A stretch of 64,000 bases of DNA from Geoalkalibacter subterraneus (GTDB lineage Bacteria > Desulfobacterota > Desulfuromonadia > Desulfuromonadales > Geoalkalibacteraceae): the NCBI RefSeq assembly GCF_000827125.1, contig NZ_CP010311.1:3059001-3123000 (forward strand), given 5' to 3'. A program made the position numbers and the translations under genes. Below are positions 16,971 through 21,529 of the stretch, in pieces. The notes under the pieces are model-generated. The model made no database searches, had not been told where the DNA came from, and was given only the letters and a program-made list of their open reading frames with translations. The stretch's first letter is position 1, and each line of letters opens with the position of its first letter.

Positions 16971-16979
16971 AGAACTCAG
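16971..16979. repeat. Target-site duplication, left copy (AGAACTCAG)
   Basis: The nonamer AGAACTCAG directly abuts the left inverted repeat of the insertion sequence and is repeated exactly at 19755-19763, outside the right inverted repeat. Confidence 0.9.
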
Positions 16980-17170
16980 CAGTGCTGACGCATGAAGCGA
17001 TGACCCGCGCCTGTGCTCAACGCCTCGGCGGGAAATTTGAGGCGTAATGCTGTCCGAATGACCCCAGAGACATCTGCCCCAGGGTGGGCGGAGCTTCTCA
17101 CGTGCTGTTTCCCCTGATTCAGGGCGTACCTACCCCTTCGCCTGCGGCGATAGGTGTGGTTGACCCTCTT

Positions 17171-18700
17171 TTATGTCAGCCGTAACTGGAAAGGGGCAGC
17201 AATCTGCTCGCGGATCCACGCCTGATTGAGCCACGGACTCGCTATCGTTTCGCGTACCAAGCGGATCAATCCCCGCACCCCGGTCTCCCGAATGATTCTG
17301 GCGATCTTTTCCGAATACCTCGCCATGATGTTGAACATGTGCCCCAATTGCATCAGATAATGGAAACCCTTCATCGCGTTCCAATCATGGCTAAAACAGT
17401 GCTCGTATTGGTAGCCGTGGTGCTTCTCTACCAGGAAGCCTGTTTCGACCCCCCAGCGCGAGCGTGCGCCCAGATTGCACCGCTCGTGGAGGTTCCATCG
17501 GTCGAGGGGCTCACTCGATAGCCAGAGGTGCCGGCTGGTCTTTTCCACCACGTCGCACCCCTGGTTGCCAATCTCTTGCCAGCTCTCCAGACATTCGACG
17601 ACGTTTACGATCTCCCGCTTCCTGCCGTTCGCCCCGAAGCTGTACTCTATCCTGTTTGCCCATCTGAAACGCTGCTGCCTGCCGCCCCAGGTTTGAAAAT
17701 GCCGGTTCTTCGGCTCAAGCCGTGCCAGGGCCTGAAATTCCTTCACCGTGCTCGGCAAGGCGTCGTCCTTCAGCACGATCATGTACTGCCATTTGTTCCG
17801 GCGGCACAGCTCCATGACTGGCCCGTTCGCATAGAGCCCGTCCAGCAACAACATGATCCGCAGCGCCGGAAACGCCTCTTTGAGCCTCGCAGCCAATCGA
17901 TAAAAAGCTTTCAGCTCGCAGTCCTGCTTGCTCCTGTGCGAATCTCCTTGCGTATGGCACAGGAACTCGCTCATCAAGGGAATGCTCATCCCGCCGGAAA
18001 AGGCGAGATTCGCCTGCAGGACATAGACGTAGTACTGCGTCTGCTCCGCGCTCTGCCCTCTATTGAACGTGCGTTGCAGGCATTCTTCGTCCCAAAGCCA
18101 GCCGCGCGCCATCTTCTGCGTACCGTCTACCGCAACGGGATAGCAATTATTGACCAAGTATCGGGAAAACTTCTTGTTTCGTATCCACTTCCGGATCAAT
18201 TCCAGCTGTACCGACGCGATCTGGTCCACCTCGATTTGTGACAATACCCTCTTGAGGGTGTCATGGTGGGGGGTCTCTTCGAGTTCGGGAAACAGGGCCT
18301 TCAGGTTCTCCCAGAGCATCGGACGGCTCATTTCCCTGGTCACCTCCCGCGAGGATGCCATCTGCAGCACGAACGACAGAATTCCCAACATCAGCAGCAC
18401 GGATAGCTTGTGCTTGGTCTTCTTCGCGGTTCTCGGATCCGGTATCGCCGACAATCGCCTCAAAAGCACCGGCAACTGGCCGCGAAACACCTTGAGCTGC
18501 TCCCAGGCCGCCTCGTTGCGGGCAAGACCCTCCTCCTCCACGCTTTTATAGCCGCTCTTGCGGTTGGCGATCGTGGCGTGGGAGGCCCTCTTCAACCCCT
18601 CTTCTTCCTGCTTGCGTCCGAGTTCCTTCTGCGCGCGTTTTCTCTGCCTTGCCTTCGCCTTGATCTCTTCGCGGTTCGCACGGCGGCTCGCTTTGCCCAT
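17171..18700 (-). CDS. DDE transposase of the insertion sequence
   Basis: The 509-residue protein starts with a strongly basic coiled region (RRANREEIKAKARQRKR, DNA binding), followed by a conserved block LLRRLSAIPDPRTAKKTKHK found in ISAs1/IS4-related transposases. The RNase H-like core has Asp192 (PVAVDGTQK), Asp287 (IMLLLDGLYANG) and a C-terminal Glu region (GVETGFLVEKHHGYQYEH), the DDE triad. No frameshift is present. It is the second gene of the IS and should catalyse cutting and joining at the 17-bp ends. Confidence 0.92.
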   Translation of the reverse strand: MGKASRRANREEIKAKARQRKRAQKELGRKQEEEGLKRASHATIANRKSGYKSVEEEGLARNEAAWEQLKVFRGQLPVLLRRLSAIPDPRTAKKTKHKLSVLLMLGILSFVLQMASSREVTREMSRPMLWENLKALFPELEETPHHDTLKRVLSQIEVDQIASVQLELIRKWIRNKKFSRYLVNNCYPVAVDGTQKMARGWLWDEECLQRTFNRGQSAEQTQYYVYVLQANLAFSGGMSIPLMSEFLCHTQGDSHRSKQDCELKAFYRLAARLKEAFPALRIMLLLDGLYANGPVMELCRRNKWQYMIVLKDDALPSTVKEFQALARLEPKNRHFQTWGGRQQRFRWANRIEYSFGANGRKREIVNVVECLESWQEIGNQGCDVVEKTSRHLWLSSEPLDRWNLHERCNLGARSRWGVETGFLVEKHHGYQYEHCFSHDWNAMKGFHYLMQLGHMFNIMARYSEKIARIIRETGVRGLIRLVRETIASPWLNQAWIREQIAAPFQLRLT

Positions 18701-18718
18701 GGCGCCACCCCCTGCCTG

Positions 18719-19603
18719 CTACGAGCAAAGCGCGCCGCGGAAATCTCCCGCAAGCGGCTTCACGAAGATCTTCTTGGGGGTCGTGCTGTAGCTCTTTCCC
18801 CTGCGCGCCAGACCTTGGCCGGTCGTCATCCCCAGGTACTGCCAGTTCGCTGCCAGATAACAGGTCCCTGCATAAAGCTCAGGGTCCACGAACGTTTCCA
18901 ACAGCAGCGGCCGATATCCCCAACGTTTGTGCCAATCGTCCCCGATGCGCCTTGCCGCCTTCCCTAAGGTGTGGCTTGCCAGGTTTTTCACCTGTACCCA
19001 GGGAAACACCAGAAAACGGCTGTTGTTGATGACGAACCCCAGGTTCCTCAGTCGCTCATCCTTGCTCCAGCCGATAAAGCGATCCCGCTCCTGCAACGAC
19101 TTCGCCGCGCCGCAAAACAGCAGACACCCCAAAAGCCCCCTCTCGCTCTCGATGAAGTAGCGTTGGAAACAGCCGATGGGAGGCGTGTACCCCAGGTAGT
19201 GATAGCGGCTCACATACTCGTTCCATAGATCGGCCGCATCCTTGCTGTCCGCCCCTGCCAGCCGAACCGGTCCGATCTCTGCGACGCTGCCTTTTACCGC
19301 CGTGGTCGCCTCCGTTCTGCGCGTCGGCTTCGGCTGCTTCTTCAGCCCCGCTCCCGGGGCGATGGTCCGCTTCCGCGGAAGCTTCAGCAATCCCTGCTGT
19401 TCGAGCTTCTCCAGTAGCTTCAGGCAGGCATCCCTCTTCAAACTCCCCGAAGCGGTGCGCCAATCCAGGTGCTCACAAATGGTAAATGCCAGTTCGAATC
19501 GGCTCAATCCTGAACATGTCGAAACCGTTTCCTGAATCGCCTCCACTTCTTCAGGACCGATGGTTCTCCCGCAGTGAACCAGTTGCTTCCTCTCGTCTCT
19601 CAT
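18719..19603 (-). CDS. DUF4338 (DruA-type) protein carried by the insertion sequence
   Basis: The 294-residue protein has an N-terminal winged-helix-like part (ETVSTCSGLSRFELAFTICE, LLEKLEQQGLLKLPRK), a linker, and the DUF4338 domain (~125-290): YHYLGYTPPIG, a GWSKDERLRNLGFVINNSRF block, FPWVQVKNLASHTLG, LLETFVDPELYAGTCY, ANWQYLGMTTGQG. DUF4338 defines DruA of the Druantia anti-phage systems, but the domain is also widespread next to transposases. Here it is the first gene of a two-gene IS with no other Druantia genes, so a role in transposition or in host interaction of the element is more likely than stand-alone defence. The biochemical activity is not known to me. Confidence 0.88.
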   Translation of the reverse strand: MRDERKQLVHCGRTIGPEEVEAIQETVSTCSGLSRFELAFTICEHLDWRTASGSLKRDACLKLLEKLEQQGLLKLPRKRTIAPGAGLKKQPKPTRRTEATTAVKGSVAEIGPVRLAGADSKDAADLWNEYVSRYHYLGYTPPIGCFQRYFIESERGLLGCLLFCGAAKSLQERDRFIGWSKDERLRNLGFVINNSRFLVFPWVQVKNLASHTLGKAARRIGDDWHKRWGYRPLLLETFVDPELYAGTCYLAANWQYLGMTTGQGLARRGKSYSTTPKKIFVKPLAGDFRGALCS

Positions 19604-19754
19604 GGCGCAGCCTCCTGGGTGAAATCACAGTCATGCCACGCTACCTTAGCGAAAAGCCGAAGCGTTGTCTAGGGTTGTTTTGCGACAAAATATTTTAGAG
19701 TCCCCCCGGAGTAGCGCTGTTTATCGGCGTAGGGAATTTCATGCGTCAGCACTG

Positions 19755-19763
19755 AGAACTCAG
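19755..19763. repeat. Target-site duplication, right copy (AGAACTCAG)
   Basis: This matches the copy at 16971-16979 exactly and contains the stop codon (19760-19762) of the adjacent diguanylate cyclase gene. Confidence 0.9.
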
Positions 19764-21529
19764 GAATAAAACTTGAATGTGTCCCGGCCGCAATCTTTGG
19801 CTCCATACATGGCGGTATCGGCATGAATCATCAAAGTCTCTGCCGTCTGCCCGTCGGTCGGATATACCGCGATGCCGATACTGGTGGTGATATGCAGCTC
19901 GGCGTCATCTTCTGCATCGCCCAAGACCACGGGCGGCAGAAGACTCTTCTGGATCTTTGCGGCCACCGCCCGAGCCTCGTCGCTGTCATGCATCTCTTCA
20001 AGGATTATGACAAATTCGTCGCCGCCGATGCGCGCAACGGTATCGGCTTCCCGCACACTGGCGTTGAGCCTTTCGGCGACCTCGCGCAGGATCCGATCAC
20101 CCGCCTCATGGCCGAGGGAGTCATTGAAATGCTTGAAGCAGTCCAGGTCAAGGAACATCAAAGCCAAAGAACGGCCTGAACGGCGTGCCCGCTCCAGTGC
20201 GTGCTCCAGGCGGTCCTTGAACAGCAACCGGTTAGGCAGTCCCGTCAGAGGGTCATGATGAGCCAGATGCTTCAAGCGGCGCTCGCTCTCTCGGACCTTG
20301 GCTTCCGCCTCCACCCGCGCGGTAATATCCCGGGAAGCCTCGATAATCCCAAGCAGTGAACCATCCCCCCTCCACAGGGGTGAAGCCACCAGTTCCACGA
20401 TGCGCTCCTCGCCCTGATGATGATGGCGATGAACGACAGTAACCGAACGGCCTGTGCGCAGCACCTCCCGAAGCGGGCAGGGATGATCTTCTCCGGTGCA
20501 GGGTGCATCGCTGTGATGAGAGAAACGGTGACAGAGCCGTTCTTCCTCTGTCATAAGGTCTGCCGAATCGCGTCCGGCAGCGGCATTCATCAACAAGACC
20601 CGGAATTCAGTATCGATCACCATGATCGGATCGGCAATCCCATCAATGACGCTTTGCAGAAAGCCTCGCTCTCGCAGAACGCTCTCTTCACGGTCGGCCA
20701 CGGCGCGGGCCATGGTATCGAACGCCTGGGAGATATCGGCCATCTCATCTTTTCCTGCAATGGCCGCCCGTACCGAATAATCGCCCCCTTCCCAGGCCGT
20801 GGTGGCACTTTTAAGGTGCTCCATGGGTCGCAGCACAAAACGCTTGAGAAAAAAGGAAATAGAGAGAAAGGTGAGAGCAAAAAGCCCCAGATGGGTAAAA
20901 AAGTTCTGCTTCATCTGCCTTGCCACGCGCTGTTCCAGAATGGACGCAGGCAGCTTGATGCTTAGAATTCCAGCAAGATCCTCCATCTCATAATCGAGGT
21001 CGGTGTCGTAATAATCCCTGAGAGTCGGTGAAGCTTCCCCCTCCCGGCTGTGGCAGTTAAGGCAGTAGGAGTCGATCCACAAAGGGGTGGAATACTGGAA
21101 AAAACGCTGGCCCTCCTCGCTGTGGTAGGTGTCCATCCACTCTTCGGCCGTAGGGTTTTCCTTGAAGAAGCGGATCGCCTCTTTCTCGATACCGTCAGCC
21201 CGATTGACCGGGTTGCGGGGTCGGTCCGACACATTGTTGAAGGTCAGGCCGCTGTTATTCCATTGTTCAAAATGCCGGACAATGCGCGGCAGGGCATGCC
21301 CCGGCAGAAATCCCAATGTATTTTCATCCAGTTCCAACCCGCTTTCGAGAAACTGCCTCTGGTAGACAAAGCGGGTCGCCATGATGAAATCATGCAGAAC
21401 CTTGGCTTCAGCATACATGTCACGCTGCACATCACGGCGGATCTGGCGGTAGTCGAAAAACTCCACCACGGCAAAAGAAAGAAAAAAGATCATGCCGATG
21501 GCCGCCATCAGCTTTGTCTGAAGCCTCAT
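19760..21529 (-). CDS. Heme-sensor membrane diguanylate cyclase (DUF3365-HAMP-PAS-GGDEF)
   Basis: A signal-anchor helix (~8-24) precedes a periplasmic Tll0287/DUF3365-type domain (~30-205) with a single c-heme motif CLNCH (156-160). A second membrane helix (~209-229), a HAMP domain, a PAS domain with several Cys/His residues (~290-410), and a GGDEF domain (~430-589) follow. The active motif is intact (RIGGDEFVI), so it should make cyclic di-GMP from two GTP; no EAL domain follows. A covalently bound periplasmic heme suggests sensing of redox state or a small ligand. The insertion sequence overlaps its stop codon without changing the protein. Confidence 0.93.
   Translation of the reverse strand: MRLQTKLMAAIGMIFFLSFAVVEFFDYRQIRRDVQRDMYAEAKVLHDFIMATRFVYQRQFLESGLELDENTLGFLPGHALPRIVRHFEQWNNSGLTFNNVSDRPRNPVNRADGIEKEAIRFFKENPTAEEWMDTYHSEEGQRFFQYSTPLWIDSYCLNCHSREGEASPTLRDYYDTDLDYEMEDLAGILSIKLPASILEQRVARQMKQNFFTHLGLFALTFLSISFFLKRFVLRPMEHLKSATTAWEGGDYSVRAAIAGKDEMADISQAFDTMARAVADREESVLRERGFLQSVIDGIADPIMVIDTEFRVLLMNAAAGRDSADLMTEEERLCHRFSHHSDAPCTGEDHPCPLREVLRTGRSVTVVHRHHHQGEERIVELVASPLWRGDGSLLGIIEASRDITARVEAEAKVRESERRLKHLAHHDPLTGLPNRLLFKDRLEHALERARRSGRSLALMFLDLDCFKHFNDSLGHEAGDRILREVAERLNASVREADTVARIGGDEFVIILEEMHDSDEARAVAAKIQKSLLPPVVLGDAEDDAELHITTSIGIAVYPTDGQTAETLMIHADTAMYGAKDCGRDTFKFYS

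What the first reader, a model, noticed from the sequence alone, without database searches (positions are those of the whole stretch)
16971..19763. Intact insertion sequence carrying a DUF4338 (DruA-type) gene, 9-bp duplication over a stop codon
Two perfect 17-bp inverted repeats, an exact 9-bp target duplication and two uninterrupted genes show a complete and probably recent element of 2775 bp. Its first gene encodes DUF4338, the domain of DruA in Druantia defence, paired here with a DDE transposase. This suggests a transposon origin or a transposon-linked function for DruA-like proteins. The duplication contains the TGA of the diguanylate cyclase gene, so that protein survives unchanged.
Basis: partly seen in the sequence, partly recalled or inferred. 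Interest (0 to 1): 0.65.

Follow-up and report, generated by a model that had tools for sequence, protein, structure and literature searches.

The report
Jumping gene with Mom-like accessory enzyme
This is a complete, recently active bacterial jumping gene whose second protein, labelled as a phage-defence protein, actually belongs to a group found repeatedly inside many unrelated jumping genes and looks like the DNA-modifying enzyme Mom of phage Mu, which suggests that transposons share an unrecognised helper enzyme.

Summary
Window 16980-19754 is an intact 2775-bp insertion sequence with 17-bp perfect inverted repeats and a 9-bp duplication. It has seven near-identical copies in this genome, and two other copies show their own 9-bp duplications. 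The same gene pair, inside inverted repeats, occurs in Desulfoferrobacter, a Nitrospirae MAG, a Clostridiales MAG and others.

The Druantia reading is only partly right. The first gene does carry the Pfam DruA/DUF4338 domain. But it misses the PADLOC DruA models, is very distant from real Druantia DruA, and no DruE was found nearby or in this genome. Real DruA also lacks residues that this group never varies.

What is there instead is a transposon-linked DUF4338 clade. In 55 of 80 sampled loci it lies next to, or is fused with, a DDE transposase of at least six IS families. Its predicted GNAT fold is closest to phage Mu Mom (Z 15.3, next 12.7), and the Mom residue replaced in the inactive crystal mutant is invariant here (113/113).

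I propose a DNA-directed acyltransferase that helps the element spread. The chemistry is inferred, not shown. A sibling IS without the gene also transposes, so the gene is an accessory.

The parts
16971..16979 (.). left copy of 9-bp target duplication AGAACTCAG
16980..16996 (+). terminal inverted repeat CAGTGCTGACGCATGAA (transposase-side end)
   Evidence: same end in all seven genome copies
17171..18700 (-). DDE transposase, 509 aa, IS4-type signature (D192, D287, R415-x3-E419-x6-K426)
   Evidence: homologues with the same neighbour
18719..19603 (-). DUF4338 protein, 294 aa
   Evidence: PF14236; AlphaFold2 pLDDT 92
18740..19282 (-). stretch coding for the Mom-like GNAT domain (residues 108-288) with invariant H135, R173, R196, S210, E236, Y249
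19364..19603 (-). stretch coding for the N-terminal helical region (residues 1-80), possibly a winged helix
   Evidence: secondary structure; only weak HTH matches
19738..19754 (+). terminal inverted repeat TTCATGCGTCAGCACTG (DUF4338-side end)
19755..19763 (.). right copy of 9-bp target duplication, includes the TGA stop of the diguanylate cyclase gene
19760..21529 (-). host diguanylate cyclase-type gene whose 3' end was the target; left intact

Best explanation
The element is a complete, recently active insertion sequence. A 509-aa IS4-type DDE transposase moves it with 9-bp target duplication. Its first gene is not a Druantia gene but a member of a transposon-linked DUF4338 clade: a Mom-like GNAT acyltransferase, probably DNA-directed, that works for the element. 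Different DDE transposases have picked it up repeatedly, as a neighbouring gene or as a fused domain. Shown here: intact element; the same pair inside inverted repeats in other phyla; many transposase partners; DUF4338 inside the element ends; predicted GNAT fold with Mom as closest solved structure; conserved Mom-like residues; purifying selection like that of the transposase. Inferred: that it is catalytically active, that its substrate is DNA (element ends, donor or target DNA, or host DNA near the transpososome), and that the modification raises the success of transposition or protects the moving DNA from host nucleases.
For: Seven copies in the genome with identical ends. Pair conserved: all five independent full-length close homologues of the transposase (over 700 bits) have DUF4338 directly upstream; ten of the 80 named loci have the same pair; a Desulfoferrobacter and a Clostridiales MAG copy have inverted repeats plus 9-bp duplications around both genes, and two more MAG copies have inverted repeats. 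Recurrent partnership: 55/80 loci have an adjacent or fused transposase, of IS66, ISLre2 (UPF0236), Tn5-like IS4, window type, IS1634-like and other DDE_Tnp_1 types; ISAs1-type fusions and a Tn5-type fusion occur in this same genome. The gene lies inside inverted repeats plus 8-10-bp duplications in IS66-type (L107, L117, L126), Tn5-type (L133, L151) and L154 elements. The tree needs at least 11 partner changes. Fold and active site: model pLDDT 92; Mom of phage Mu is Foldseek rank 1 and VIA Z 15.3 over 168 residues against 12.7 for the next entry; the only residue altered in the inactive Mom crystal mutant (S114 of the gene product, titled S124A) aligns with S210; H135, R173, R196, S210, E236 and Y249 are invariant in 113/113. 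Selection: dN/dS about 0.14-0.15 in the three unsaturated pairs, close to the partner transposase's 0.10-0.15. The GNAT nature of DUF4338 is stated in PMC10853773.
Against: No activity has been measured. The Mom match by sequence alone is weak (PF25680 E 0.011, under cut-off; hhalign probability 1%). A sister transposase with 9-bp duplications moves without DUF4338, so it is not essential. 25/80 loci show no recognised transposase nearby, and some of these genes sit in a shared context in related hosts, so a host-side function is possible too. The N-terminal DNA-binding reading is weak.
Confidence: 0.5

Rival explanations
1. DUF4338 is a non-catalytic or DNA-binding cofactor of the transpososome: its N-terminal helices and GNAT-like fold bind element ends or target DNA, and catalysis plays no part.
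For: Direct fusion to transposases of several families implies work at the same DNA; the N-terminal region has a helix pattern that could be a winged helix (weak HTH matches).
Against: Residues that never vary include those at Mom's active-site positions; the ISAs1-type fusions lack the N-terminal region but keep the GNAT core.
Confidence: 0.2
2. DUF4338 is a passenger gene of a 'transporter IS', giving the host or the element a benefit unrelated to transposition, such as anti-restriction or anti-phage activity.
For: Mom itself protects phage Mu DNA from restriction (established knowledge); DUF4338 relatives occur in defence-like operons; some genes stand alone in hosts.
Against: Repeated fusion to the transposase ORF and association with many unrelated transposases in both gene orders is unusual for a host-benefit passenger; no DruB-E relative near any transposon-type member in the flanks held.
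Confidence: 0.2
3. DUF4338 acylates a protein, for example the transposase or a nucleoid protein, to regulate transposition.
For: Many close folds after Mom are protein acetyltransferases such as Naa60 and RimI.
Against: Mom stands above them (Z 15.3 against 12.7) and shares the catalytic serine position.
Confidence: 0.1

Closest known systems
Mom of phage Mu (PDB 8bv8), adenine DNA hypermodification enzyme
   Same: Best solved structure match of the model; catalytic serine, Y149 and N153 positions shared, and by alignment R101 and H48
   Different: About 15% identity; an extra N-terminal helical region; encoded by IS elements, not a phage; DNA modification not shown
DruA of Druantia type I (P. 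putida pKF715A, Nitrosococcus, Meiothermus)
   Same: Same Pfam family PF14236; hhalign probability 96% to this clade
   Different: 25-31 bits against 150-430 for the clade; lacks H135, R196, S210; DruE near it, which the transposon clade never has here
IS4-superfamily insertion sequences (IS4/Tn5, ISAs1, IS1380)
   Same: DDE with R-x3-E-x6-K, PF13808 as in the ISAs1-type fusions, 9-bp duplications
   Different: No NCBIfam IS model reaches its cut-off (best IS1380, 22 of 180 bits); carries a second conserved gene
Transporter IS (IS with passenger genes; concept from own knowledge)
   Same: IS with an extra gene besides the transposase
   Different: The extra gene is shared by many unrelated IS families and is sometimes fused into the transposase, so it looks like an accessory of transposition
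DUF4338-Tn5 and DUF4338-ISAs1 fusion elements in the same genome
   Same: Same DUF4338 clade with a DDE transposase
   Different: Fused ORF (ISAs1 type with an apparent frameshift); ISAs1 type has other ends and duplications near 10 bp

Membership tests
Insertion sequence | terminal inverted repeats, target duplication, transposase, multiple copies with the same ends | tested here: met
PF14236 DruA/DUF4338 | score over the curated cut-off (27 bits) | tested here: met
   115 bits
Druantia type I | DruB-DruE, above all the DruE helicase, next to DruA | tested here: not met
   no Dru protein in the window or in any transposon-type locus; no DruE found in own genome
Druantia type I | match to PADLOC DruA models | tested here: not met
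   no match for this protein at E up to 1; 57 of 65 relatives match weakly
Mom family (PF25680) | score over the curated cut-off (27.1 bits) | tested here: not met
   15.8 bits, E 0.011; relatives up to 21.2 bits
Mom-like GNAT fold | fold match and catalytic serine position | tested here: met
   (predicted structure)
Mom-like DNA modification enzyme | acyl-type modification of DNA bases | not testable with these tools
   needs expression and nucleoside mass spectrometry
IS1380 family | NCBIfam equivalog NF033539 over cut-off | tested here: not met
   22.2 of 180 bits
ISAs1 family | NCBIfam equivalog NF033564 over cut-off | tested here: not met
   8.6 of 70 bits; PF13808 is met
Transporter IS with a passenger gene | extra gene not involved in transposition | not testable with these tools
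   needs a transposition assay with and without the gene; a sister IS transposes without it

The most novel reading that the evidence does not exclude
Many unrelated bacterial insertion sequences share a Mom-like enzyme that chemically modifies DNA bases as part of transposition, marking or shielding the element or its target: a DNA-modification step in transposition that has not been described, with Druantia DruA as a distant, altered relative used in defence.
Probability: 0.3. Interest if true: 0.88.

Novelty: new variant of a known kind. Interest (0 to 1): 0.6.

Why it matters
DUF4338 proteins of this clade are at risk of being read as Druantia defence genes through the Pfam name, while the evidence places them in mobile elements; annotation of 'orphan DruA' may need correction. 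If the enzyme modifies DNA, transposition in several IS families would have an unrecognised chemical step, directly testable with one catalytic mutant. It also gives a comparative handle on DruA, whose biochemical activity I found no report of: the two groups share a family but differ at the active site.

Tried and rejected
Druantia membership: rejected. NCBIfam IS families: none reached. PDB by sequence alone for both proteins: nothing useful. Viral contigs with the single protein: no relative; with the alignment: four loci of three contigs, three of the loci beside IS66. Transposase structure model: too poor to use (pLDDT 62), so not searched. N-terminal region: only sub-threshold HTH-like matches, left as a suggestion. 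Solo DUF4338 loci L083-L087 as mini-elements with inverted repeats: no convincing ends; L089 has one matching end only and looks like a remnant. Papers: only three in the library name DUF4338, none in connection with transposons; no paper holds DruA, transposon and DDE together. The library is partial, so this does not prove novelty.

Full report
1. THE OBSERVATION. The element is real and exact. Perfect 17-bp inverted repeats lie at 16980-16996 and 19738-19754, flanked by AGAACTCAG on both sides. Two genes on the minus strand fill it, DUF4338 first and the transposase 18 bp behind it, each with a good ribosome-binding site. Seven copies at 100% identity (rounded) lie in the genome. Copies L006 and L007 have their own 9-bp duplications, ATGGCGCAC and GAGTTGCTG. 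The remaining copies form a tandem array of three with 7-bp linkers, and one whose flank pairs with that of the array, as an inversion between copies would give (inference). The diguanylate cyclase stop codon is inside the duplication, so its protein is unchanged.

2. THE TRANSPOSASE. P0002 matches PF13808 above cut-off and PF01609 just under. It has D192, D287 and an R-x3-E-x6-K motif with E419, as in the IS4 superfamily. No NCBIfam IS model comes near its cut-off, so I leave it as an unnamed IS4-type group. Every independent full-length close homologue found in the phylum and class searches (own, G376, G600, G139, G117) has DUF4338 directly upstream. More distant relatives (under 290 bits) have none in the flanks held; two of these are fragments. 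One such relative, in G632, is a 1698-bp element with CAG...CTG ends and 9-bp duplications in two compared copies. The gene is therefore a lineage-specific accessory, not a universal need.

3. THE PAIR ELSEWHERE. A scan of named genomes gave 80 DUF4338 loci, the best of more than 584. This sample leans towards window-like proteins and was capped. Ten have the window-type transposase downstream, in Thermodesulfobacteriota, Nitrospirota and Bacillota. Element ends were found around both genes in Desulfoferrobacter suflitae (9-bp duplication TCAAAGAAG), a Clostridiales MAG (GCGATGCTC), a Nitrospirae MAG and one other MAG. Three of these share the CAGnnCTGACGC-type end (one Desulfoferrobacter end reads CATTGCTGACGC); the Clostridiales end is CAGGGGTGAAG.

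4. MANY PARTNERS. In 55 of 80 loci a DDE transposase is adjacent or fused: 25 IS66, 10 window type, 8 Tn5-like, 7 ISLre2/UPF0236, and a few others. Gene order varies: DUF4338 follows the transposase in most IS66 and adjacent Tn5 types and precedes it in ISLre2 and window types. Fusions occur in both orders: DUF4338-Tn5, DUF4338-ISAs1, DUF4338-DDE_Tnp_1 and IS66-DUF4338. DUF4338 lies inside inverted repeats with fitting duplications for IS66 types (8 bp), Tn5 types (9-10 bp) and one further type (8 bp); ISLre2 types show 18-26-bp inverted repeats around both genes with no duplication found; in some loci no ends were found. The tree of 107 domains needs at least 11 partner changes; ISAs1 fusions (support 99), Tn5 fusions (94) and six adjacent-Tn5 rows (100) each group. 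This very genome holds three separate DUF4338-transposase combinations: the window element (7 copies), a 1924-bp ISAs1-type element (10 copies, duplications near 10 bp) and one Tn5-type fusion.

5. WHAT THE PROTEIN IS. The AlphaFold2 model is confident (pLDDT 92). Foldseek ranks phage Mu Mom first; VIA-align gives Mom Z 15.3, rmsd 3.6 over 168 residues, the next entry 12.7. Among viral models a phage protein named Mom is second. DUF4338 has been called a GNAT domain before (PMC10853773). The Mom crystal is an inactive serine mutant; sequence comparison shows the changed residue is S114 of the deposited gene, which both hhalign and MAFFT place opposite S210 here. H135, Y149, R173, W179, R196, S210, E236 and Y249 are invariant in 113 sequences. 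The sequence link to Mom alone is weak, so the claim rests on fold plus residues. dN/dS in the three least saturated pairs is about 0.14-0.15 for DUF4338 and 0.10-0.15 for the transposase, so it is maintained by selection.

6. NOT DRUANTIA. A genuine Druantia I operon was found in P. putida pKF715A, with relatives in Nitrosococcus and Meiothermus. Their DruA is a remote relative (hhalign 96%; 25-31 bits) with SW for the HY motif, no R196 and GG at S210. DruE is found only near this divergent type. Origin and direction of exchange remain open.

7. MECHANISM. Steps shown: transposition-type insertion, conservation, partner switching, predicted GNAT fold, conserved Mom-like site, purifying selection. 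Steps inferred: enzymatic activity, DNA as substrate, benefit to the element. I prefer DNA acylation in aid of the transposon because fusion puts the domain at the transposition complex and the nearest solved relative modifies DNA. A binding-only cofactor and a host-benefit passenger are the main rivals.

8. NOVELTY. IS elements with extra genes are known. I found no report of this recurrent DUF4338-transposase partnership in the papers at hand, but the library is partial and ISfinder could not be searched.

Noticed in passing
L035 (G000:C1:1998496-2006834): Three copies of the window element in tandem with 7-bp linkers TCCCGGA; the array's right flank pairs with that of another copy (L005), suggesting an inversion between copies.
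   Followed up: partly
L034 and L035, next to the window element's copies: A 1924-bp DUF4338-ISAs1-type element lies within about 11 bp of two window-element copies; in L035 its 10-bp duplication CCCGGACACA includes the first two bases of the window element.
   Followed up: partly
L036 and L041: Tandem dimers of the 1924-bp element at two sites share the same 10-bp linker GCCCTGATTG but have different outer duplications, so the dimer seems to move as a unit.
   Followed up: partly
L041:3679-3784: The DUF4338-ISAs1 ORF breaks at CCCAAAAAAAGTC and continues in another frame; the run of A suggests programmed frameshifting, and a relative in G049 shows the same ending.
   Followed up: partly
L033:2413-4749: Single-copy 778-aa fusion of DUF4338 to a Tn5-like transposase in the same genome.
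   Followed up: partly
L099 and L108: Stand-alone DUF4338 gene with shared upstream context in two Desulfosarcina genomes: a member kept by the host without a recognised transposase.
   Followed up: partly
L058, L059, L060: ORFs that join DUF4338 to a glutamine cyclotransferase domain in genomes of one genus.
   Followed up: no
L170-L173: Long DUF4338 proteins in other operons with ATP-binding, FtsK-like or NERD/helicase genes, a possible defence context apart from Druantia I.
   Followed up: no
rank 1: An uncharacterised 469-aa Faunusvirus (giant virus) protein is the best viral structure match by E-value, ahead of Mom.
   Followed up: no
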